Shown piece after piece: positions 12,664 to 36,795 of a stretch of 39,477 bases of DNA; the first letter of the stretch is position 1; each line of letters begins with the position of its first letter. Below the pieces are notes generated by a model. It was not told the origin of the DNA. It searched no databases and worked only from the letters and a program-made list of their open reading frames with translations. The stretch is from IMG/VR virus record IMGVR_UViG_3300049203_000080, positions 1 to 39,477 of that record; one strand, written 5' to 3'. The translations under genes and the position numbers were made by a program. The stretch comes from a virus.

Positions 12664-13467
12664 TCAGGCCTCCAGCGCTTCAGCGACAGCGCGGCCGATC
12701 GCCACGACGGCGGCCTCGCGCATGTTGTTGTTGGGTTGTTCCGCCTTCACGCGGTTGATCTCATCGCGCCATTCAGCCTGGTCGGCACCGCCCAGGACGA
12801 TCGCGATCAGATCCTGCTGTCCCACGCCATGCGCGGCGATCGCCGCTTCGACGCCGGGGAAGATCGTGCCGAAATAGCGCAGCACCTGCCCTGAGAAGGC
12901 GACGGAAGCCGTCAGGCATGCCGAGCGCAGCACCTGCTCACCGCTCTGGCGCAGGCACTTCTCCAGACCGCCGATGTTGCAGATTTGGCCGGGCTTCCAC
13001 GCATCGGGGTTGGTCGTCGCAGCGACAGACAAGCCAGCATTGTTGAGGGCGTCGAGGATCTTGCCCGCGTCGCCATCGCCAGCCGCGAGCGCGGCCTTGA
13101 ACAGGTCGAGCTTGCTTAGCGGCCGCCGCTGCTGGTTCAGCGCGACGAAGGCCGCAGCCTCATCATCGGCGCAGCGCGACGCGATGACGACGCAGGGCAG
13201 ATCGTAAATGTCGCCGCGATCGCGAGCCGCCGCGAGGCGGTGCTGGCCGTCGATCACCCAAAGCGACCCATCTTCGCGCTTCGCGACATTCAGGGGCTGG
13301 CACAGGCCCCAATCCCATTCCCGCGCGATCCGCTTGACCAGCGACTGGCTAGGCCCGGTGTCGATCGAGCGCTGATAGCTGTCGTCGATCCGCAGATCCG
13401 CGATCGGGCGAAACTCCAGGCTCGGCCGCTGGCCACGCTGGGCACGAAGTTTGGCCGCGCCGCTCAT
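12664..13467 (-). CDS. ParB/sulfiredoxin-fold protein (shorter of two)
   Basis: A 267-residue protein with a ParB-like N-terminal domain at about residues 15-110. It has EFRPIADLRIDDSYQR and the box VIDGQHRLAAARDRGD, the phosphate-binding motif of this fold. The region after residue 115 is helical and could bind DNA. No ParA-type ATPase is present, so plasmid-like partition is not supported. In phages such proteins are often nucleases or regulators. It overlaps the larger ParB-like gene by 4 bp (ATGA), and the pair appear to be a unit. Confidence 0.82.
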   Translation of the reverse strand: MSGAAKLRAQRGQRPSLEFRPIADLRIDDSYQRSIDTGPSQSLVKRIAREWDWGLCQPLNVAKREDGSLWVIDGQHRLAAARDRGDIYDLPCVVIASRCADDEAAAFVALNQQRRPLSKLDLFKAALAAGDGDAGKILDALNNAGLSVAATTNPDAWKPGQICNIGGLEKCLRQSGEQVLRSACLTASVAFSGQVLRYFGTIFPGVEAAIAAHGVGQQDLIAIVLGGADQAEWRDEINRVKAEQPNNNMREAAVVAIGRAVAEALEA

Positions 13468-15215
13468 GCCGCTTCATCCATCTCAGCGGCCATGGCTCCA
13501 GCCCATGCTTCGATCGAGGGCCAGACCTGCATCGCGCCGTTCGCGCTTTCGACCAGTTCGGCCAGATCATCGTAGAAAAAGCTGGCATTCTCATCGCCGG
13601 CATCTTCCTGCTCATCGACATAGGCACCGCTTTCCCAGCGGAAATGCGTAACGCCATCAACATGCACGACTGCTGGCTGGGGGTCCATTGCCAGGACTTC
13701 GTTATGCTGCGCTGCCAGCGCGGCAGCTTCCTCTTCCTTGGCTTTCTGCTCAGCTTCACGCTGCGCGGCCGCTTCCGCTTCCTGACGGTCGAATTCGGCT
13801 TCAGCCGCTTCCAGCTGGGCATCGATCTCAGCGGGCGTCACCATGACGCCGATCGTGACCGAATAACATTCACCGATGCCGTCGATTTCTTCCGTCCGGT
13901 GCAGCGAGGGGCGCATGCTCTGCCAGAAATGGCGGCCCTCTACCTTCTGCTCGCGGATATCCCTTGCGGCCAGGAACGCCGCCACAGACCGGATGGAGGC
14001 CGCGCGACGCTCCGCCGCGCGCTCAGCTTCCGATTTCGTCGGCGCATCCTGCCGGGCAGGCACAATGTCGGCCATCCGCGCACCCGGGACGAAAAAACCT
14101 TCGTCCAGGACCAAATTGCCGGCGTGGTTCACCCCCGCATAGCCGATGATATCGATCCCGCTGTCGCTGGCTTTCTCGCGCAGCTTTGCCATGCTCGGCA
14201 GATCGGTGCGCCAATAGGGCCGCTCGACCTTCTCATAGCCCTTCGGAGGTTTTGGGACCTTGCCTAAGCGCAGCCCCGGCACGAGGATCACGGCGCTGGT
14301 GGTCGGATGATTGCGCTTTGCGTCGGCTTCGACGCCCACGATCTGGAAATTCGCCCGATCAGTGGCGATGCCGACGATGATGTCGGGATCAATCAGCTTC
14401 CGGCCTGAATAATTCTCGGCATCACCGAAGAGATCATCTTCATAGCGGCCGCCCTTTTTCTCATAATCCGCCTTGCCAACGAATTTGAACAGCGCGTCGC
14501 CGGTCGTCATCACCGAGTTCGTGATACCTGATCGGATGCTCTGGACGCCATGGCCCCAGGCTCCCTTCTTCTGTTCCGCCGCGAAGATCTTCAGCTGCAG
14601 CTTTTGGTCCTGCGTTGCCGCATAGGCTATGGCCGCATCGATCGTCAGCTGACCCGCGCGCATCGCTTCGAGAACTTCCGGCGCGAGCGCAGCCAGCCGC
14701 AGGCGCTGCTTCACATAGCGCTCGCTGAAGCCGAACTGCTTTGCCAGATCGGCGGGCGACAGCGTGCCCCGTCGCATCAGCTGGGCGAACGCTAGAAACT
14801 CATCCGCCGGGTTCATGTCGCGCTTGGCGAGGTTTTCCGACAGGGATAGGTCGATGGCCTCAGCCGCCTCGCGGATCAGCACAGGCACGTCAAAGCTGTC
14901 ATCCATAACGCCGCGATCGCGCAGGACATGAAGCGCCTGAAGCCGACGGCCGCCACCGACAACGTAGACCGCATCCTTGTCGATGTCGGTATCGCCTTTG
15001 TAGCCGATCAGATTCTGCAGAAGGCCATGCGCGGCGATATCGTCGGCCAGGCTTTCGACATCGGCCGCCTTGTCCGTATGGCGCACATTTTCAGGCGCGC
15101 GGACAAGACGACCGAGCGGCACCGGCTGAATTGCCATAGGTGCGACCCGAGGGCTGGCCGGTGCGGTAATCTCTTCTGACGCCACAGTCGGCGTCGCTTT
15201 CTTAGGTCTTGCCAT
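13464..15215 (-). CDS. ParB/RepB/Spo0J-family protein (longer of two)
   Basis: A 583-residue protein. The ParB nuclease-like domain occupies residues 30-125 (PVPLGRLVRAPENVRHTD, VVGGGRRLQALHVL). A KorB/ParB-type helix-turn-helix follows (ENLAKRDMNPADEFLAF at about 130-147, LAKQFGFSERYVKQRLRLA at about 160-180). The remainder is long and includes a charged coiled-coil-like stretch rich in Glu, Ala and Lys near 470-510. ATG 15215 has AGAAGGA eight bases upstream. It is the first of a tightly packed gene run that leads to the sliding clamp. With no ParA or visible parS, a role in replication or gene regulation is more likely than segregation. Confidence 0.88.
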   Translation of the reverse strand: MARPKKATPTVASEEITAPASPRVAPMAIQPVPLGRLVRAPENVRHTDKAADVESLADDIAAHGLLQNLIGYKGDTDIDKDAVYVVGGGRRLQALHVLRDRGVMDDSFDVPVLIREAAEAIDLSLSENLAKRDMNPADEFLAFAQLMRRGTLSPADLAKQFGFSERYVKQRLRLAALAPEVLEAMRAGQLTIDAAIAYAATQDQKLQLKIFAAEQKKGAWGHGVQSIRSGITNSVMTTGDALFKFVGKADYEKKGGRYEDDLFGDAENYSGRKLIDPDIIVGIATDRANFQIVGVEADAKRNHPTTSAVILVPGLRLGKVPKPPKGYEKVERPYWRTDLPSMAKLREKASDSGIDIIGYAGVNHAGNLVLDEGFFVPGARMADIVPARQDAPTKSEAERAAERRAASIRSVAAFLAARDIREQKVEGRHFWQSMRPSLHRTEEIDGIGECYSVTIGVMVTPAEIDAQLEAAEAEFDRQEAEAAAQREAEQKAKEEEAAALAAQHNEVLAMDPQPAVVHVDGVTHFRWESGAYVDEQEDAGDENASFFYDDLAELVESANGAMQVWPSIEAWAGAMAAEMDEAA

Positions 15216-20338: not shown

Positions 20339-20547
20339 ACGCGTTCAGCGTCCTCGATCTCGCGCTGGCCATTGCCGAAGACATGGCGGCAGAGGATGCT
20401 GCGCGCGAGTTCGAATCACAGAGAGACTTCACCCATGAGCTGGGCACCGGAAGGCACCCGCGTCGCAATCTACGCGCGCTTCAGCACGGACATGCAGAAC
20501 GCCCTAAGCGCCGAGGATCAGATCAGGCTCTGTCGAGCCTACGCTGA
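20335..20547 (+). CDS. Short reading frame leading into the integrase
   Basis: A 70-residue frame from ATG 20335, coupled by ATGA to the gene before it. Its first 33 residues (MNAFSVLDLALAIAEDMAAE, then DAAREFESQRDFTHELG) are a plausible helical protein. The rest runs out of frame through the first 113 bases of the integrase and is low in information. It may serve mainly to deliver ribosomes to the integrase start. Confidence 0.5.
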   Translation: MNAFSVLDLALAIAEDMAAEDAAREFESQRDFTHELGTGRHPRRNLRALQHGHAERPKRRGSDQALSSLR

Positions 20548-22081
20548 ACGGCAGGGCTGGCAGGTCGTCGACGCCTATTCTGACGCGGCCATTTCAGGAC
20601 AGAACAAGCACCGCCCCGGGCTGAACGCGATGCTCGCCGCCGCCGATCGGCGCGACTTCGATATCGTCCTTTCGGAATCGCTCGACCGTATCGCCCGCGA
20701 TCTAGGCGACACGGCCGAGATCTACCGCCGCCTGGAGTTCGCCAGGGTCGCGCTGTTCACCTGCTCCGACAACCGCGTAACCGAACTTCACATCGGCTTC
20801 ATCGGCACGATGAGCGCCCTCTACGTGAAGGAGCTGGGCAGCAAGATCCGCCGAGGCGGGAAGGGGCAGGTCGGACGCGGCCGAGTGCCGGGCGGCCGCT
20901 GCTATGGCTATGACGTGACGCCGGTCGTGAACAGCGACGGATCGGTCGAGTTCGGGCACCGCGCCATCAATGAGGAAGAGGCCGCGGTCGTCCGCCGGAT
21001 CTTCCGGGAATATGCCGAAGGCGTCCCGCCTCGCACCATCGCCCACAAGTTGAACGCGGAAGGCGTCCCTTCGCCGCGCGGCACCGAATGGCGCGCAAGC
21101 ACCATCAACGGGTCGGCAGCACGTGACTATGGCATCCTGCGCAACCCGATCTATGTCGGTCGCATCCGCTACGGCCGCGTCCGCATGGTGCGCGACCCCA
21201 ATTCCCGCAAGCGGCTGTCGCGGGTCGACGTCCAGCCGGACATTGTCGAGGGCGAAGCGCCACACCTGCGCATCATCGACGATGCGCTCTGGTCGATCGT
21301 CCAGGAGCGGAAAGAAGATCTCGCCCATGTCCCGTTCCATCGGCAGCGCCGGGCGCGGCATGTGTTGAGCGGCCTGGTCCGGTGCGGATGCGGCGGCACT
21401 TATACGATAGTGTCGAAAGACCGTTGGGCCTGCTCCCGGCATAAGGAGGCGGGCACCTGCGACAATGGCCGCCGGATCTCCACCGGCCGCCTTGAACAGC
21501 GGGTTCTATCCGGCCTGCAGGACCGGCTCCTAGATCCGGAGATCATCCGCGCAGTGGTGAAACGTTATCATGATGCGCGGACGCAAGCGCGAGCAAAACT
21601 CCAGTCTTCGCGCTACCGGGCAGAGGAACGGGTCGACCAGCTGAAGGGCGAGATCCGCAACCTGGTCAACGCGATCGCCGCCGGTGCCGACATGGATGAA
21701 GTGAAAGAAGCGCTGAAGGACCGCAAGGCAGCGCTCGCGTCGGCCGAAGCCGCCTTGGCCGAGCATGAAGCCGTCCCGGCCATCATCCTGCATCCACAGA
21801 TCGTCGAAGCATACCGGCGCAAGATCCGCCAGCTGGGCGACGCGCTCACCAGTGGCGAGCAGGCACAGAAATATCTCCCGATGATCCGCGACCTGGTCGA
21901 GGCCGTGATTGTGCGGGATGACGAAAACGCGCCCGATCGCGCGTCCCTGGAGCTGGTCGGAAATCTGTCAGCAGTGCTTGCGATCGCGACAGGAAAGCCT
22001 GTGCCAATGAAGCGGACTGTAAAGGTGGTAGCGGAGGAACGTTACCGCCTCGACAGTCCGCTGAAGAAGTTCCGGGTTTAG
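20435..22081 (+). CDS. int: Large serine recombinase (phage integrase)
   Basis: A 548-residue integrase. The resolvase-type catalytic domain is at 8-150, with catalytic Ser17 in YARFSTD and the arginine-containing SESLDRIARD. The recombinase domain is at about 165-280 (GGRCYGYDV, RRIFREYAEGVPPRTIAHKL, ILRNPIYVGRIRY). A zinc ribbon at about 305-345 (LVRCGCGGTYT, then ACSRHKEAGTC) and a coiled-coil at about 375-450 follow. These enzymes integrate phage DNA unidirectionally at att sites. ATG 20435 follows an AGAGAGA stretch. The gene is the last of the operon and ends in convergent 4-bp overlap with the o-spanin gene. Confidence 0.95.
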   Translation: MSWAPEGTRVAIYARFSTDMQNALSAEDQIRLCRAYAERQGWQVVDAYSDAAISGQNKHRPGLNAMLAAADRRDFDIVLSESLDRIARDLGDTAEIYRRLEFARVALFTCSDNRVTELHIGFIGTMSALYVKELGSKIRRGGKGQVGRGRVPGGRCYGYDVTPVVNSDGSVEFGHRAINEEEAAVVRRIFREYAEGVPPRTIAHKLNAEGVPSPRGTEWRASTINGSAARDYGILRNPIYVGRIRYGRVRMVRDPNSRKRLSRVDVQPDIVEGEAPHLRIIDDALWSIVQERKEDLAHVPFHRQRRARHVLSGLVRCGCGGTYTIVSKDRWACSRHKEAGTCDNGRRISTGRLEQRVLSGLQDRLLDPEIIRAVVKRYHDARTQARAKLQSSRYRAEERVDQLKGEIRNLVNAIAAGADMDEVKEALKDRKAALASAEAALAEHEAVPAIILHPQIVEAYRRKIRQLGDALTSGEQAQKYLPMIRDLVEAVIVRDDENAPDRASLELVGNLSAVLAIATGKPVPMKRTVKVVAEERYRLDSPLKKFRV

Positions 22082-29427: not shown

Positions 29428-29783
29428 CCGAAATATTCCACCTTGCTCTGTTCGGTTTCGAGATCGACTTCGATGCGTGAGACCAGCAGCAGGGCGTCGA
29501 GCCCTTGCTCGCTATCGATCACGCGATGCGTCGGAACGGTGCCGGCCGGAACGTCGACCAGATCCGCCACTGTGACGCTGAAGCGCCGCCGCACCACCCC
29601 GAGCAGCGCCGCGCGCTGGGCAAGGGCGGCGCTGGCGTCGGTAGCGCTGTCGAAAAAGCCTTCCGCCGGGCTGTCGCTGTTGTCGCGTGCCGACGGGAAG
29701 CGACCCTTGATCGTCAGATCCTGAGAGGACACGACGATCTGCTGCCGCAGGGCAGCAGCGATATCGGACGGTATCGCGGGCAT
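29424..29783 (-). CDS. Small minor tail protein, hypothetical
   Basis: A 119-residue protein directly after the tape measure gene (ATG 29783 overlaps its stop by one base). Sequence pattern: ALRQQIVVSSQDLTIKGRF, then a domain with GVVRRRFSVTVADLVDVPAG and ALLLVSRIEVDLETEQSKV. It is likely a tail tip component. No name can be given from the sequence. Confidence 0.65.
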   Translation of the reverse strand: MPAIPSDIAAALRQQIVVSSQDLTIKGRFPSARDNSDSPAEGFFDSATDASAALAQRAALLGVVRRRFSVTVADLVDVPAGTVPTHRVIDSEQGLDALLLVSRIEVDLETEQSKVEYFG

Positions 29784-32700
29784 CAGACGTAGTTCCGTGA
29801 CAGGCCGATGAAGCCGCCTGCAGCGATGGCCTGCTGGATTTCCTGCAGCTTCTGCACGATCGCCGGAAAGCCTTGGGCCATCAGCTGCACACCATTTTCA
29901 GTGCTGGCAGCGGTCGCCTGCGCCGCCTTCGCCGTTGCCTCATTGAAGGGATCGGACGTGGTGCGGATCGGCGCGGCATTGTCGATCGTCGCGATCGCGT
30001 TGCCAGTCGCGCCCTGGATCATGTCGAACGCTTCGAAATATTTCGCGGTCGACCCGTAAAGCTGCCGCTCGATGTCCAAAAACGTCTGCGCCGCCGACTG
30101 ATATTTTTCCTGATCGATCGACTCGCCCCGGGCGATCTGCCCCAGAAACGGATCAAGCACTGCCCGCGCATTGGCTTCCTGGTCGCGTAGAGACAGCGGC
30201 GAGCCCGACCCGGCGTTCAGGGACTGAAGAAATTCCTTCAGCGCTTGGCTGGCGCTCCCGGCGTTTTCCTTCGCTTCGGCCAGCTCCAGATTGTAGAGCT
30301 TTTGCGCGTCGGCCATTTGCTCGGCGGTTGCGCCACCTTCACGCAGCGCTTCGACGATCTTCTTGAAGCGGTCGTTCACCTCATCGATCGCGTAGCCCAC
30401 GGGATCGAGACGCTTTTGCAGTTCCTTCGGCACGGACTCGACCAGCAGCGCCTTTTCCAGCGCCTTCTGCAGATCCTGCCCCGACTTTAAGATATTGATC
30501 GACGCTTGGCTGATCCCGGTGATCACGCCGCCCTCGATCGACTTCTGGATGGCGAAGGCTACGGCATCTTCCGCGCCATTCTTGCCGAAGTCATAGAGCC
30601 CTTCCGCGCTCTTGCCGCTAAAGTTCAGCTTGCCGGTATAGCCGGTCGTCGAGACGCGATATTTGTCCTTATAGGTGCCGATGGTGATGTTCGGCACGCC
30701 CGTAATCTCGGCCCCCAGCTGATCGGCGATATCCTCGATCCCGTTGATGACATGACCGGCGGCACCCTTCGCGGCGGCCTTCTGCGCAGATCCGCGACCG
30801 CTGGTGACATTGGCCGTCAGTTCGCCATATTGGTTCATGCTGATCGCGGCGGTGCCGTATTTCGGCTTGCTCAGCAGGCCGCCGAGCAGAGATCCCGCCA
30901 TACCGCCGATGATGCCCGCGATCGGCCCGCCCAATCCGGCCAGCTTGGAGGATATCGCGCCCAGACCCTTGCCCACGGCATCGCCCAGCAACTCTTTGCC
31001 CACGGCACCGCCCAGGGCACCGCCCAGCGAACTTTGCTTGCCGCCGAACACGGTGCCCGCCAGCGAGGAGCCCGCGACCCCCAGCGACGCCCCCTGCAGG
31101 ATATCGCCAAATTTCTTGCCGATCGCGTCGGGAATATCGATCCCGAACGATTTCAGCCGCGCGACAATGGACTGGCCTATGAAGTTATAGGCGTCCGTCG
31201 CGCCGATCAGCGCCTTCGTGTTGTCGTTCGCCGCGTCGGCCTGCTTCCGCGCCGTTACGACGATCTCCGCTTCGGCGCTGCTGGAGCCGGTGACGACGTC
31301 GGATTGCTCGGCCTTTAGATCGGCCAGGAAGCCGTCATCCTTGAACAGGGCGGCCATGCTGCCAGCCAGGTTCGTCGTGGCACCGCCAGCGGCGACAATC
31401 CGGCCGCTGCCGATATCACCGCGCACCTGCGCCACCACATCGGCGAAGGACTTCAGCTCATTCCCGGCAACGGTCGTCTGCGACGACAGGAACTGATTCG
31501 CCTGCTCGACGCCGGTTCGGCCAGTCACGAAATCCTCGATCTTCCGGTCGAGGCCGCCGAAGATGCCTTCGGAGATGATGCGAGCCTGCAGGGACTTGAA
31601 GCTGGCCAGCAGATTACTGCCAAATTCCTTCACCGTGCCACCGCTCAGCAGCCGTTCGGTCGCGCTCTGGACATCGCCGATCGCTTGCACATAAAGGCCC
31701 ACCTGCCGCCGCTGATCCTCGATCGCGCGCGAGCGGGCTTCGTCGGCCTTGGCGATCTCCAGCACTTTCGCCAGCTGCTGCTCATTGAGCGGCCCCATCT
31801 GGCGCTCAAGCGCCAGCACCTGCTGCAGCGCGTCAGCTTCGGCATAACGGCCCTGGACGACCAACGCGTCGATCTGCTCGCGCTCGCGGGCGCGGTCGAC
31901 CAGGTCGCGCAAAGGACGATCGAGCGATTCGCGCACAACGATCTTCGCCTGCTCGGCTGATTTAATGGTCTCTTCGAAGTTCGGCGGCCGACGGCGGCTG
32001 AGATCGTCGATAATGTCGTCGAGATCCCGAACAGCCTTCTCGACCTGTTGGACCCGTGAGGCATCGCCACCAAAACGTGAAGCGATGTCCGCAATCCTGT
32101 CGGCAGAATCGCGGCCGAACTCATCACGCGCGGCGATCGCCCGGCTGTTGTCTTTCGGCTTGTTCGTCTTTGGACGCAGCAGCAGCGCGCGATCGGCGGC
32201 AGTGCCCGCGCCTTTCAGAAGCCGCTCCGTCCCCTCATACTCCTTCAGGTTGCGGAGTTCGGTGCCAAGCGCAGTCACAGAGGCGGCAGCGGACGCGAAT
32301 GCCTCATCCGTCAGAGCGCCAGCCTTCCGGAGGCTATCCAACCGCTCAACGGCCGTGGCGGCGTCCAGTTCACCTGAAAGCACCTGCTGGGAAATCACGC
32401 CGCGCGCGCCGGCATCCTTGCGCGTGACGGAAAAGCCGCCGCCCATGCCCCCCGAAAATTCGGTGGTGGGCGACTGGAGGGCAAGGATTTCGCTTCGCGC
32501 AGTGTCAGCGCGGGTGCGGGCTTGGATAGCCGCAACCTTGGCCTGCGCAATTGCCAGGGCAATCAGCTCCTTCGATTGCTCGCGGATCTTGCCAGTCGTC
32601 AGATCCATGACAGAGCCCAGGATATTCTGAGCGCTGCCCAACTGGTCCGAAGCGAACTTCGTCTTGTCGAGGGCGTCGGAGGTATCCTCCAGCTTCTCGT

Positions 32701-33427
32701 AGAACATGCCCAGGACAATGCCGGCCGTGGTCAACGCCGCCACCCAGGGATTGGTCAGGAAACGGCCCACGGCACCTGCCTTGCCGCTCATGTCGGATAG
32801 TGCGCCGCCGACTTGGCCTATCTGCTGGCCGAAGATGACGAACAGGCTACCACCGCTCGCCAGCGACGCGCCCACGTCCGAAAGCTGGAATCCGAGGTTT
32901 CGCATCGCCAGCTGATTGTTGCGCGCGGAGTGATCGAGCCGGCTCTGCTGGTCCGTCAGCTGCTTCGTTCTGCTGCTGGTTTGGTTCAGTTCGCTCTGCA
33001 GACGATCGAGTGCGACAGCCTGGTTATTCAGGCTGCGCACATTCTCTTCTGCCTCGCGCGCAGCCGCCTCAGCTGCTGCCACATAGAGCCGAGTTTCGGC
33101 CGTCGTGTCGCCTGTCGAAGTTGCAGCCTGTCGCGCGGCCGTTGCGATCTCGCGCAATGCCTGCGCCTCATTCTGCGCAGCAGCTGCCGCCGCCTTGATC
33201 GAGGAGCTATCGAGATTTAGCGCGCCCGTATCGGTGCGCGGCAGATCGAGCGCGCGCTTCGCCATGGCCTGCACTTCCGCGAAACTGGCATCGAAGGAAG
33301 ACTTCATGCGCGCGGCCGTGTCGGAGGCCCGCTTTTCCATCTCACCAAACGCCCGCGCATTTTCAGCGGAGAAGGACTCGGCATTCAGCGCGAGGCGGGC
33401 AACGATGTCCGACGAACGACTAGCCAT
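29783..33427 (-). CDS. Tape measure protein
   Basis: A 1214-residue protein, the longest of the tail module. The N-terminal 180 residues are helical and Ala/Arg/Gln-rich. A hydrophobic block at about 185-245 (GSLFVIFGQQIGQVGGALSD) is followed by long charged helices. A glycine-rich, membrane-like segment lies near 790-860 (LGGPIAGIIGGMAGSLLGGL). These are tape measure features: length sets tail length, and the hydrophobic parts may enter the membrane at DNA ejection. ATG 33427 has GAGGA upstream; an upstream ATG at 33439 is less well placed. Confidence 0.9.
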   Translation of the reverse strand: MASRSSDIVARLALNAESFSAENARAFGEMEKRASDTAARMKSSFDASFAEVQAMAKRALDLPRTDTGALNLDSSSIKAAAAAAQNEAQALREIATAARQAATSTGDTTAETRLYVAAAEAAAREAEENVRSLNNQAVALDRLQSELNQTSSRTKQLTDQQSRLDHSARNNQLAMRNLGFQLSDVGASLASGGSLFVIFGQQIGQVGGALSDMSGKAGAVGRFLTNPWVAALTTAGIVLGMFYEKLEDTSDALDKTKFASDQLGSAQNILGSVMDLTTGKIREQSKELIALAIAQAKVAAIQARTRADTARSEILALQSPTTEFSGGMGGGFSVTRKDAGARGVISQQVLSGELDAATAVERLDSLRKAGALTDEAFASAAASVTALGTELRNLKEYEGTERLLKGAGTAADRALLLRPKTNKPKDNSRAIAARDEFGRDSADRIADIASRFGGDASRVQQVEKAVRDLDDIIDDLSRRRPPNFEETIKSAEQAKIVVRESLDRPLRDLVDRAREREQIDALVVQGRYAEADALQQVLALERQMGPLNEQQLAKVLEIAKADEARSRAIEDQRRQVGLYVQAIGDVQSATERLLSGGTVKEFGSNLLASFKSLQARIISEGIFGGLDRKIEDFVTGRTGVEQANQFLSSQTTVAGNELKSFADVVAQVRGDIGSGRIVAAGGATTNLAGSMAALFKDDGFLADLKAEQSDVVTGSSSAEAEIVVTARKQADAANDNTKALIGATDAYNFIGQSIVARLKSFGIDIPDAIGKKFGDILQGASLGVAGSSLAGTVFGGKQSSLGGALGGAVGKELLGDAVGKGLGAISSKLAGLGGPIAGIIGGMAGSLLGGLLSKPKYGTAAISMNQYGELTANVTSGRGSAQKAAAKGAAGHVINGIEDIADQLGAEITGVPNITIGTYKDKYRVSTTGYTGKLNFSGKSAEGLYDFGKNGAEDAVAFAIQKSIEGGVITGISQASINILKSGQDLQKALEKALLVESVPKELQKRLDPVGYAIDEVNDRFKKIVEALREGGATAEQMADAQKLYNLELAEAKENAGSASQALKEFLQSLNAGSGSPLSLRDQEANARAVLDPFLGQIARGESIDQEKYQSAAQTFLDIERQLYGSTAKYFEAFDMIQGATGNAIATIDNAAPIRTTSDPFNEATAKAAQATAASTENGVQLMAQGFPAIVQKLQEIQQAIAAGGFIGLSRNYV

Positions 33428-33439
33428 TCTGATCCTCAC

Positions 33440-33539: not shown

Positions 33540-34043
33540 ATGAACGCCATCGCTCGCGCCGCAGCCGCGCTAATCTGCCTTGCATCGACCAGCGCGATCG
33601 CTGGCCCGGTTGCGGAAACCCTGCAGCATCTTAAGCAAGTCGTCGCAGCAGAGACCGTGGACCCAACTGCGCGTATATTTGACGCGTCCTTCCGATCGGA
33701 AGCATCCAAATCCGGCACCATCTATTGGCTGTGCGGCAAGGTCATCGCTCATGGCAAACCACCCCGAGCCTTCATCGCAACCTTAAATCCAGATGACGCC
33801 GAGCTTTTCCCATTTCCGGAAGTAACCGCCGCTGCATCCGATCAGGTCGGAAGTCAGTGCCGCGACGGCTTTACAAAATACTCCAGAGGCGACGATGTCG
33901 ATAAACAACAGCTTCAACAAATATGCGCCCGAGCTAAATATCTTTCTACAGCTAGGGTGCAGCAGACCACGTTTGACTTGAAATTCATGTCTGAGTGTAA
34001 GTTCCGGGGGACTGAGCACCCGTTTGCAGCATTCGATGAATAA
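33540..34043 (+). CDS. Secreted/periplasmic moron protein in the tail operon
   Basis: A 167-residue protein with a signal peptide (MNAIARAAAALICLASTSAI, likely cut after the AIA at residue 21). The mature domain contains a few cysteines (IYWLCGKVIAHGKPPRAFI, DQVGSQCRDGF, QICARAKYL, SECKF). It is the only plus-strand gene inside the long minus-strand tail operon. A minus-strand terminator lies at its 5' side and a convergent gene at its 3' side. The 3' half is more AT-rich than its neighbours. This is the arrangement of a moron expressed from the prophage, possibly for superinfection exclusion or host modification. No homologue is recognised. A start at ATG 33540 follows GTGG. Confidence 0.75.
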   Translation: MNAIARAAAALICLASTSAIAGPVAETLQHLKQVVAAETVDPTARIFDASFRSEASKSGTIYWLCGKVIAHGKPPRAFIATLNPDDAELFPFPEVTAAASDQVGSQCRDGFTKYSRGDDVDKQQLQQICARAKYLSTARVQQTTFDLKFMSECKFRGTEHPFAAFDE

Positions 34044-34046
34044 GCC

Positions 34047-34721
34047 CTAGCTGCTGGAAAGCCGCTGAGCGACAATACTCCCAAGCTTCGCCCCTGCAGC
34101 GTCGATCACCGGCTGCAGAGCGACACGATTGGCAAAGGCCACGCTCGGGATCAGCACGAAGATCGGCGTCGTGGTGGCACCACGCAGAAAGCCGCGCCGC
34201 TCATCCGCCTGCGTCCGCTTGCGGGTGATCGGCCTGAAGGTGCCCGTCCGTCCGTTCAAGGTGCCTTCGTCGGCGACCAGCAGCGACGCGCGACCAGGCC
34301 GATAGACGAAGCGGAGGCGAATGCCCGTGCGCCGTTCCCATTCCCCCGGCGTGAGGTTGCGGTTGCGCCCGCGAGAACCCGCTGCCGGCAACGGGATGGC
34401 GAGATAGAAGCCATCCTTGCCGGCAATGCGCCCCGGCCTGGTGAAGAACTCGAAGGCACCCTTCGTGCGCGACCCGCCGTTCAGGTAGATCTCGCCCGCC
34501 GGGTTTCTGGCGATGCCACTGCGCGGATAGACCGCGGATTTTAGCGCTCGCCAGAGGCCGCCAGGGACGGCGCTTCGCACCAGCTGCTCCAGATCCTGCT
34601 CTAGCTCGCGCGTGGTGACGCGAACCGCATCAGATCCCGCGCGAAGCATGCGCCGCGCCGCATCGTCCCGGGCAGACCGGATCGATGCGGTGTCGACGCC
34701 AAATCGGACGCTATCGGCCAT
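34047..34721 (-). CDS. DUF6441-like tail-region protein
   Basis: A 224-residue protein between the tail assembly chaperone and the tape measure. It is basic and has the FYLAIPLPAAG element and WRALKSAVYPRSGIARNPAG of the DUF6441 type. A region at about 120-160 has WERRTGIRLRFVYRPGRAS. The family is found in phage tail clusters and its role is unassigned; a tail completion role is likely. ATG 34721 has GAGGCAAGG upstream, within the end of the frameshift product, overlapping it by 11 bases. Confidence 0.7.
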   Translation of the reverse strand: MADSVRFGVDTASIRSARDDAARRMLRAGSDAVRVTTRELEQDLEQLVRSAVPGGLWRALKSAVYPRSGIARNPAGEIYLNGGSRTKGAFEFFTRPGRIAGKDGFYLAIPLPAAGSRGRNRNLTPGEWERRTGIRLRFVYRPGRASLLVADEGTLNGRTGTFRPITRKRTQADERRGFLRGATTTPIFVLIPSVAFANRVALQPVIDAAGAKLGSIVAQRLSSS

Positions 34722-35001
34722 CCTTGCCTCGCGAAAGTCGATCCAGGGTGGCAAATGCGTCCATCAGCGCGGCGGGCTGGTCTCCCGGCCCGCCGGCGCT
34801 GGGCAGGGCCGCCCCCCCGAACGGCCCCGCGTAACGCTGCGTCATGAACCAGAGGTCGACGACGCCCCAGATCCAGCTTGGGAGTTCAAGGCGGGGATTG
34901 CCGGGCCATCGTTCGCCGTCGATGTCCCATCCGCCCTCGACGTGTCGCTCGACGAAGTCGAGGGGTCGGCGTCGGACTGCGAGGGCTGCTGAAAAGTCCG
35001 G
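34711..35001 (-). CDS. -1 frame extension of the tail assembly chaperone (G-T type)
   Basis: The -1 frame relative to the chaperone opens at 35001 (after a TGA at 35004-35002) and stays open to a TAG at 34713-34711. It reads as good protein sequence (ERHVEGGWDIDGERWPGNPR, then LELPSWIWGVVDLWFMTQRY, AGPFGG). The 0-frame product over the same bases is a low-information Ser/Thr/Asp-rich tail. A -1 slip on the TTTT of ACT TTT CAG (34995-34992) gives a 280-residue fusion of residues 1-187 and 93 new ones. Such gpG/gpGT pairs are a rule in siphovirus tails. Confidence 0.75.
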   Translation of the reverse strand, partial: PDFSAALAVRRRPLDFVERHVEGGWDIDGERWPGNPRLELPSWIWGVVDLWFMTQRYAGPFGGAALPSAGGPGDQPAALMDAFATLDRLSRGKDGR

Positions 35002-35552
35002 TCATCCGTCGCGCCATAGACCAGGCCATAGCCGAAGTTTCCGGCACCGATCATTTCCATGGGATCGATCGCCGCCAGCACGGCCTCCGGAATCTGCCGA
35101 TCCTTGCCGAGCGACCATTGTGCATCGACATTTTCCCAACCAATGCAGAAGCGGCGAAACACGACGATCGGCGCGATCTCCTTTCGCCGTTCCTGCTGTG
35201 CGACCAGCTCGCGATATTCCGGCCAGTGCTGCGCCAGCACGGCCCGGGCCTGGATCAGCGCCTGCCGATCACTGGGCGAAAGCTTTTCGCCGCGCGACTC
35301 GGTTTCGACCAGATCCAGGAGTGTGTCGATTTCCGGGTCGTCAGCCAGAAGCGCCTGCAGGCCGTTGCGGAAGGCTGAGATCAGCTCGAACGGAAAGACG
35401 CGGCCAGCGGCGAAGGTGCCCGAAAGCTCCGCCTCCATCTGGGCGCGCTCGACAACGCCGGCAGCGCGGAAGAAGTAGCGCGGTGCCGCTTCCTCATCCT
35501 TGCGCCAGCTGGGCACATAGGCGTGCCCGGTGGTGGTGTCTGTTGAGATCAT
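34842..35552 (-). CDS. Tail assembly chaperone, 0-frame (gpG-like)
   Basis: A 236-residue protein between tail tube and tape measure. The first 187 residues are a helical domain (AQMEAELSGTFAAGRVFPFE, LIQARAVLAQHWPEYRELVA, VFRRFCIGWENVDAQWSLG). The last 50 are Ser/Thr/Asp-rich (QSDADPSTSSSDTSRADG) and overlap a good -1 frame. It wraps the tape measure and recruits tail tube subunits. ATG 35552 has TGAGG six bases upstream. The stop TGA overlaps an ATG of the -1 frame (ATGA), so termination-reinitiation is another route to the T part. Confidence 0.78.
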   Translation of the reverse strand: MISTDTTTGHAYVPSWRKDEEAAPRYFFRAAGVVERAQMEAELSGTFAAGRVFPFELISAFRNGLQALLADDPEIDTLLDLVETESRGEKLSPSDRQALIQARAVLAQHWPEYRELVAQQERRKEIAPIVVFRRFCIGWENVDAQWSLGKDRQIPEAVLAAIDPMEMIGAGNFGYGLVYGATDDRTFQQPSQSDADPSTSSSDTSRADGTSTANDGPAIPALNSQAGSGASSTSGS

Positions 35553-35559
35553 GTTCGCC

Positions 35560-36795
35560 TCAGGAGAAGGTCAGGATGCGATCGCCGTCGCGGCTATTGG
35601 CATCCTTGCCGGGATTGAGCGCCTGCCAGCGCGTCGTTTCCGCGCGGAACGATCCGCGATCGGTCGGTGACGCCTCGATCGGCTGTGCTTTCGGCCCCAG
35701 CAGCGAGACGCGGTTGCCGGCGACGTTGCCGAACTGCAGCGCGATCGGATAGTTTGCGAAGGCGGCTATTTCCGACAGTGTGTCGCGGGTCGTGACCAGC
35801 GTCATCAGCGGATCGGCTTCGAAGATCGTGGCGCGGCCGCCAATCTCGCCGCCAGCATAGCCGTAAGCTGTGTTTGGATCTTCGGGTGCTTCGACGTTGC
35901 CGCCGTTCGTCCAGGACCAGCGGCTGATCGGAAGGCCCTTGCGGTTGACCTGCATTGCGGGCGGGAGGCCGGAGCCCTGCACCAGCAGCGGCGCGGAGTG
36001 ATTTGCGATCACCGCATTGGTAGGAACGGCGACGGCCGTCTTGCCCATGTAAACGCCGGTGAAGGAGAATGCGCCGAAGCCCGGGCGCGCCGTGTTGCCA
36101 TCAAAATCGACGGTGCCGTGGCAGTCGATCCACTGCTGCAGGTTGCCATCTTCATACCAATAGATGGTCGCGTAGGGGTGATCGGTAGCACGGGCGGAAA
36201 CGTCCGCCGGCGACGTGCCAGCATAGGACCAGTTCGCCGGCATGGCTGCCGAGGTGGATGTATCGAGCGCGGAGCCGTAAAGATCGCTCAGCGTTGCCAC
36301 CTTGCCGGACGTATAATCGGTGATCAGCGGCATGCGGCCTGCACCGACGCCGCCGGTGAGAACCAGCGGCAGACCGCGATAGGCCTGCGCGGTGGTGCTA
36401 AAACCTGTGCCGAGCGTCGCACTGGTCGTAGTGCCGGCGGTCAGGGCGGCAGCGGCGATCGCCGCCGTGAAAAGCCCCCGCATGCCGCATGCCTGCAGAG
36501 GCGCATGCAGCGGCGGCTTCACCGACGACGTGTAGGTGACACCAGCCCCAGCGCCCTTCAGGCGGCTGCGAAAGCCGAAGGTGGCAGGCTGGCCGACGAC
36601 CAGCGGCGCGGCCGCGACCAGCGAACCATTCGCTTCGTTCGAGGCTTCCGTCTGATAGGGGCTGTTGTAGGTGATGCTGCCATCCTCGAAGGGAATGGCG
36701 TCGGTCGCAGCCGACGGGCTTGCGGCAACGCCTTGGGCAGACTGCAGCGCAATCAGCAGGACGCCGTTGCGCGGCCGAATTACCGGATCGGACAT
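35560..36795 (-). CDS. Major tail tube protein
   Basis: A 411-residue beta-rich protein after the tail terminator gene, in the position of lambda V. The N-terminus RNGVLLIALQSAQGVAASPS, the central YEDGNLQQWIDCHGTVDFDG and GFGAFSFTGVYMG are typical of tail tube proteins of this phage group. It is long for the family and may carry an extra surface domain (alanine-rich insertion near 110-160). It polymerises into the tail tube. ATG 36795 has GAGGAG seven bases upstream. Confidence 0.82.
   Translation of the reverse strand: MSDPVIRPRNGVLLIALQSAQGVAASPSAATDAIPFEDGSITYNSPYQTEASNEANGSLVAAAPLVVGQPATFGFRSRLKGAGAGVTYTSSVKPPLHAPLQACGMRGLFTAAIAAAALTAGTTTSATLGTGFSTTAQAYRGLPLVLTGGVGAGRMPLITDYTSGKVATLSDLYGSALDTSTSAAMPANWSYAGTSPADVSARATDHPYATIYWYEDGNLQQWIDCHGTVDFDGNTARPGFGAFSFTGVYMGKTAVAVPTNAVIANHSAPLLVQGSGLPPAMQVNRKGLPISRWSWTNGGNVEAPEDPNTAYGYAGGEIGGRATIFEADPLMTLVTTRDTLSEIAAFANYPIALQFGNVAGNRVSLLGPKAQPIEASPTDRGSFRAETTRWQALNPGKDANSRDGDRILTFS

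What the first reader, a model, noticed from the sequence alone, without database searches (positions are those of the whole stretch)
34711..35552. Programmed -1 frameshift in the tail assembly chaperone
The -1 frame is open only from 35001 and reads as a well-formed protein while the 0-frame over the same bases is low in information. A TTTT stretch allowing a P-site tRNA-Phe slip sits two codons into the opening. The genes lie exactly between tail tube and tape measure. The slip site is not a classical X XXY YYZ heptamer, so the mechanism may be unusual; an ATGA stop-start overlap at 34845-34842 is an alternative.
Basis: partly seen in the sequence, partly recalled or inferred. Interest (0 to 1): 0.65.

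Follow-up and report, generated by a model that had tools for sequence, protein, structure and literature searches.

The report
Frameshifted phage tail assembly chaperone gene
A temperate phage makes a short and an elongated version of a tail-building helper protein by letting a few ribosomes slip back one base; this is a widespread phage trick, here with an atypically minimal slip signal (TTTT).

Summary
On the minus strand, gene 35552-34842 (0 frame, 236 aa) is overlapped by a -1 frame that opens at 35001 and ends at TAG 34711. Both halves are conserved as protein in 47 non-identical relatives (IMG/VR contigs, prophages, Synechococcus phage MinM1; in five only the second half is clear). In all of them the second half lies in the -1 frame. 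All 47 carry a classical X_XXY_YYZ heptamer at the same place (32 A_AAA_AAC, 13 G_GGA_AAC, 1 A_AAA_AAA, 1 C_CCT_TTG). So -1 programmed frameshifting to make an N-C fusion (280 aa here), the lambda G/G-T arrangement, is well supported. Initiation at the ATGA (34845) cannot explain it: the -1 protein is conserved about 47 codons upstream of that ATG.

The window is the only member without a heptamer. The slip must fall within six codons, where the only slip-prone motif is T_TTT (34995-34992). U_UUU is a known, weak, stimulator-dependent tetramer in E. coli. A candidate stem-loop (34986-34915) starts 5 nt downstream, with modest statistical support and no conservation. Neither half matches Pfam or PHROGs, but the mechanism is known. 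Slippage is inferred, not measured. A new member of a known kind, with a minority slip motif.

The parts
34842..35552 (-). 0-frame ORF (236 aa); residues 1-187 are the conserved N domain (lambda gpG-like short product)
   Evidence: N domain conserved in relatives; AF2 pLDDT 93
34992..34995 (-). T_TTT tetramer, the proposed slip site (0-frame ACT TTT CAG; -1 frame TTT TCA)
   Evidence: Only slip-prone Z_ZZN motif in the six codons between the -1 stop and the first invariant -1 residue; sits within one codon of the heptamers of 47 relatives
34711..35001 (-). -1 frame open region including stop TAG; encodes the C domain of the fusion (T-like extension), containing GDQPAALMDAF near its end
   Evidence: AF2 pLDDT 85
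34915..34986 (-). candidate downstream stimulatory stem-loop, 5 nt after T_TTT, -37.3 kcal/mol
   Evidence: z -2.7 dinucleotide shuffle, p 0.034 against synonymous recoding, but sensitive to window borders; no conserved pairs
34842..34845 (-). ATGA overlap of the -1 frame ATG with the 0-frame TGA; the reinitiation alternative, judged not sufficient
   Evidence: the -1 protein is conserved 47 codons upstream of it
35560..36795 (-). upstream neighbour, probable tail tube protein (411 aa)
   Evidence: Homologue upstream of the pair in 43 of 47 relatives; tube role inferred from position (no family hit)
34047..34721 (-). downstream neighbour, DUF6441 protein, overlapping the end of the -1 ORF
   Evidence: PF20039 E=3e-22, phrog_6367; downstream of the pair in 40 of 47 relatives
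29783..33439 (-). tape measure protein (1218 aa)
   Evidence: PF06791 TMP_2 E=3e-8, phrog_167

Best explanation
This is a two-part tail assembly chaperone gene expressed through -1 programmed ribosomal frameshifting. Most ribosomes read the 0 frame and make the N domain plus a short Ser/Thr-rich tail. A minority slip back one base at ACT_TTT_CAG, where tRNA-Phe re-pairs from UUU to the overlapping UUU one base upstream, and then continue into the -1 frame. The result is a 280-aa N-C fusion (...DDRTF-SAALAVRRRP...). By analogy with lambda gpG and gpG-T, the N domain would coat the tape measure protein and the rarer fusion would recruit tail tube subunits. Shown: the -1 architecture and the conservation of both halves. 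Inferred by elimination: the site of the slip. Inferred: slippage itself, its efficiency, the stimulatory role of the stem-loop and the chaperone function.
For: 47 non-identical relatives, all with the C domain in the -1 frame and all with an X_XXY_YYZ heptamer at the same place. In five of them (L025, L027, L062, L072, L079) a 0-frame TGA follows the heptamer directly. The -1 frame score is far above a 0-frame-only null. No ATG/GTG/TTG in the -1 frame for at least 35 codons after the slip in 45 of the 47 relatives, and for 49 in the window. The slip interval 35001-34986 holds only one slip-prone motif, T_TTT; any of six such motifs occurs in 7.3% of six-codon stretches of this phage, T_TTT in about 0.7%, a heptamer in 1.2%. 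U_UUU ranks third of 16 tetramers in E. coli with the IS3 pseudoknot, and U_UU[U,C] are among the predominant tetramers of IS1/IS3 elements (PMC4066793). A stem-loop begins 5 nt downstream. Synteny: tube homologue upstream in 43/47, DUF6441 downstream in 40/47. The best BFVD fold matches include annotated tail assembly proteins, though none is significant.
Against: The window lacks the heptamer that every relative found has. Tetramers alone are barely shifty in E. coli without a stimulator (PMC4066793). The stem-loop statistics are modest, and z falls as low as -0.2 with other window borders. No covariation. No SD-like element upstream of the window's site. Neither half matches a named chaperone family. 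No protein evidence.
Confidence: 0.88

Rival explanations
1. The C region is a separate small protein started at the ATG of the ATGA overlap (34845) by translational coupling or reinitiation.
For: ATGA is present at 34845-34842; coupling at ATGA is common in phage operons (general knowledge). The most conserved block GDQPAALMDAF lies after it.
Against: The -1 protein is conserved over 47 codons upstream of that ATG (AAL.VRRRP.DF...GW.I...W..NP). Relatives do not share the ATG: the first possible -1 starts lie at varied positions and three relatives have none in the 70 codons scanned. Five relatives end the 0 frame right after the heptamer, far from most such starts.
Confidence: 0.04
2. The window copy has lost its slip signal (decayed heptamer) and makes little or no fusion; the phage is defective or uses another route.
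For: Only member of 48 without a heptamer; no SD-like element upstream.
Against: Both reading frames are intact and conserved. A T_TTT motif is present where its chance is about 0.7%, next to a downstream stem-loop.
Confidence: 0.04
3. Sequencing or assembly error at the slip site hides a classical heptamer.
For: The window is a metagenomic virus contig and the site deviates from all relatives.
Against: A second contig (IMGVR_UViG_3300049023_000025) is identical over 6.7 kb including the site, although it may come from the same sample series. The -1 architecture itself is shared by all relatives, so it is not an indel error.
Confidence: 0.03
4. The frame change comes from transcriptional slippage at TTTT rather than ribosomal slippage.
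For: Poly-A/T runs can cause polymerase slippage (PMC3711429).
Against: The T run is 4 nt; the runs cited for transcriptional slippage are longer (A more than 7, T more than 8; PMC3711429). Relatives with GGGAAAC and CCCTTTG have no long homopolymer.
Confidence: 0.01

Closest known systems
Lambda G / G-T tail assembly chaperones
   Same: Two-part gene near the tail tube and tape measure genes; [quoted passage not shown]
   Different: No detectable sequence family in common; N domain 187 aa; the window's site is T_TTT (lambda uses a heptamer, GGGAAAG, from memory)
IS3/IS1-family Z_ZZN tetramer frameshifting
   Same: -1 slip on a four-base motif with re-pairing of a single tRNA; U_UUU and U_UUC are among the motifs used (PMC4066793)
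   Different: Different gene, product and stimulator; IS3 uses a pseudoknot, here only a modest candidate stem-loop
HK97-type tail assembly chaperone cluster
   Same: Phage chaperone genes with measured frameshifting of 6-7% (PMC3711429)
   Different: No match of this family to any Pfam or PHROGs model was found, so no shown kinship
Relatives found here (e.g. L004, L014 in Sphingorhabdus sp. 109, L062 in Synechococcus phage MinM1)
   Same: Homologous N and/or C domains, same -1 order, DUF6441 downstream
   Different: All have a classical heptamer; the window does not

Membership tests
Phage tail assembly chaperone expressed by -1 frameshift (lambda G/G-T type) | Two overlapping ORFs, second in the -1 frame, both conserved | tested here: met
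Phage tail assembly chaperone expressed by -1 frameshift (lambda G/G-T type) | Position between tail tube and tape measure | tested here: met
   Tube homologue upstream in 43/47 relatives, tape measure downstream in the window; DUF6441 interposed. Tube identity itself rests on position
Phage tail assembly chaperone expressed by -1 frameshift (lambda G/G-T type) | Slippery heptamer X_XXY_YYZ in the overlap (usual, not strictly defining) | tested here: not met
   Absent in the window, present in 47/47 relatives. PRFect reports that most annotated phage frameshift overlaps lack it (PMC10885494), so this does not exclude membership
Phage tail assembly chaperone expressed by -1 frameshift (lambda G/G-T type) | Sequence or fold similarity to known chaperones | tested here: inconclusive
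   No Pfam/PHROGs hit; no PDB match; BFVD top hits include tail assembly proteins at E 0.08 or weaker
Phage tail assembly chaperone expressed by -1 frameshift (lambda G/G-T type) | Both products made, fusion the minority, binding tape measure and tube | not testable with these tools
   Needs protein experiments
Z_ZZN tetramer (single-tRNA) -1 frameshift site | Z_ZZN motif in 0-frame phase inside the allowed interval, no heptamer | tested here: met
   T_TTT 34995-34992
Z_ZZN tetramer (single-tRNA) -1 frameshift site | Stimulatory element a few nt downstream | tested here: inconclusive
   Stem-loop at 5 nt, z -2.7 or p 0.034 depending on the null; border-sensitive, not conserved

The most novel reading that the evidence does not exclude
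Within one chaperone family that otherwise uses tandem-tRNA heptamers, this phage lineage switched to a single-tRNA U_UUU slip and compensated with a stronger downstream RNA structure. That would be a natural experiment on how the short-to-fusion ratio is kept while the slip chemistry changes.
Probability: 0.35. Interest if true: 0.45.

Novelty: new member of a known kind. Interest (0 to 1): 0.3.

Why it matters
It gives an annotation rule for a chaperone family that has no model in the Pfam and PHROGs copies searched: each member should be annotated as a short protein plus a -1 fusion. It also offers a set of 48 orthologous frameshift sites with five different slip motifs at one position, useful for testing how slip motif and stimulator co-evolve.

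Tried and rejected
(1) Close relatives by the 0-frame protein in phages, viral contigs and genomes: one identical contig only; the -1 product found the family. (2) Named families for either half: none in Pfam or PHROGs. (3) A conserved RNA stimulator: RNAalifold gives 0 pairs; per-locus z averages -0.8 (45 nt) and -1.1 (75 nt), weak. (4) SD-like upstream stimulator: present in some relatives (e.g. GGAGGAGAGG in L006), absent in the window. (5) C_CCC at 34965-34962 as slip site: in phase, but downstream of the conserved AALAVRRRP block, so rejected. (6) +1 slippage on UUU_C as in influenza PA-X (PMC3498833): gives the wrong frame. (7) PDB fold search: no match. (8) Plasmids, searched with a query stitched from pieces of the L004 C domain: none. 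(9) Rfam, tRNA: none in the window. (10) The 0-frame similarity after the slip (1.50) also exceeds its synonymous null (0.52 +/- 0.26). I attribute this to shared ancestry of codons, since some relatives have no 0-frame tail at all; a role in other members is not excluded.

Full report
Observation. On the minus strand the 0-frame ORF 35552-34842 (236 aa) overlaps a -1 frame that opens at 35001, after a -1 stop TGA at 35004-35002, and ends at TAG 34713-34711. Joined at TTT, the fusion is 280 aa. The window is a virus record in IMG/VR with terminase, portal, capsid and tail genes, an integrase (with a DNA-invertase-like match, so probably serine-type) and an S24-type repressor-like gene, so probably a temperate tailed phage. 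The pair lies between the probable tube gene and the tape measure gene, but a DUF6441 gene and an opposite-strand ORF lie between it and the tape measure gene.

Conservation. The -1 product finds 10 distinct non-identical viral contigs and a Sphingorhabdus prophage at 46-60% identity. Profile searches with each half extend this, as does a scan of 398 genomes of the Sphingorhabdus genome's family, 14 of which match. Synechococcus phage MinM1 carries a distant C domain. After removal of duplicates there are 47 relatives. [quoted passage not shown] The N domain was recognised by profile in nearly all; in L075-L078 it is weak or absent, and in L062 the record ends there, so for those five only the C domain and the site count.

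Which frame is real after the site. Over the first 25 codons the window against the others scores 2.16 (BLOSUM62 mean) in the -1 frame. If only the 0-frame protein were constrained, 0.04 +/- 0.23 is expected. The 0 frame scores 1.50 against 0.52 +/- 0.26 expected from the -1 protein alone. Sequences are related, so these are not independent tests, but the asymmetry is clear. In five relatives the 0-frame stop follows the heptamer at once (L025, L027, L062, L072, L079), so the 0-frame tail is dispensable there.

The slip site. The 47 relatives all have an X_XXY_YYZ heptamer at the same place: 32 A_AAA_AAC, 13 G_GGA_AAC, 1 A_AAA_AAA, 1 C_CCT_TTG. The window reads GAC CGG ACT TTT CAG CAG. The -1 stop at 35004-35002 and the first invariant -1 residue (Ala, 34986-34984) confine the slip to six codons. 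Only T_TTT allows full re-pairing. In this phage's genes any of the six slip-prone tetramers of Sharma et al. occurs in 7.3% of six-codon stretches, T_TTT in about 0.7%, a heptamer in 1.2%. Sharma et al. rank U_UU.U third of 16 tetramers in E. coli with the IS3 pseudoknot, report that tetramers alone are barely shifty, and find U_UU[U,C] among the predominant tetramers used by IS elements (PMC4066793). PRFect also reports that most annotated phage frameshift overlaps lack the classical motif (PMC10885494).

Stimulators. An imperfect stem-loop spans 34986-34915 and begins 5 nt after T_TTT (-37.3 kcal/mol). Its z is -2.7 against dinucleotide shuffles and -1.9 (p 0.034) against synonymous recoding of the -1 frame. 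With different borders z ranges from -0.2 to -2.7, other parts of the gene reach similar z, and no pairs are conserved in the family. C_CCT_TTG of L013 also has a strong structure (z -5.2 over 45 nt). Two cases are not enough to claim compensation. The window has no SD-like element upstream; several relatives do.

ATGA alternative. The first start codon of the -1 frame in the window is 49 codons after the slip; relatives have no shared start at that position and three have none in 70 codons. The conserved -1 protein extends 47 codons upstream of the ATG. Reinitiation could at most add a shorter C product.

Function. Synteny fits a tail assembly chaperone: tube homologue upstream in 43/47, DUF6441 downstream in 40/47; some loci are too short to show both. 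The N-domain model is good (pLDDT 93), the C-domain model fair (85). Neither has a PDB match. The best BFVD matches of the N domain are an uncharacterised phage protein and a putative tail assembly protein of Pseudomonas phage POR1 (E 0.075 and 0.084, probability about 0.9), with more tail assembly chaperones lower down: suggestive only. The gpG / gpG-T model (PMC5009743) is applied by analogy.

Verdict. The finding is real and correctly read: -1 frameshifting in a chaperone gene. It is a new member of a known kind, in a family without a Pfam or PHROGs model, and the only one of 48 with a tetramer instead of a heptamer. Nothing here measures slippage.

Noticed in passing
window 33540-34043 (+): Opposite-strand ORF (167 aa from ATG 33540) with a signal-peptide-like start, between DUF6441 and the tape measure gene; no Pfam hit to the enclosing ORF and no homologue in the fetched relatives: a possible moron gene.
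   Followed up: partly
L006, L020, L022 downstream of the pair; L004, L017, L023, L033 upstream of it: DUF6441 or tube homologues lie roughly 300-800 bp further away than usual, suggesting inserted genes around the chaperone pair in several relatives.
   Followed up: no
48 loci, 0 frame after the slip motif: The 0-frame stop lies exactly 36 codons after the motif in 25 of 48 loci, probably a by-product of a conserved -1 Leu codon CTG followed by A.
   Followed up: partly
window 34866-34755 (-): Very strong predicted RNA structure (75-nt windows down to -57 kcal/mol, z -4.2) in the C-domain coding region, around and downstream of the ATGA.
   Followed up: no
window 12664-13467 and 13464-15215 (-): Two adjacent ParB-like genes in a phage that also carries an integrase, probably serine-type (20372-22081 +).
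   Followed up: no
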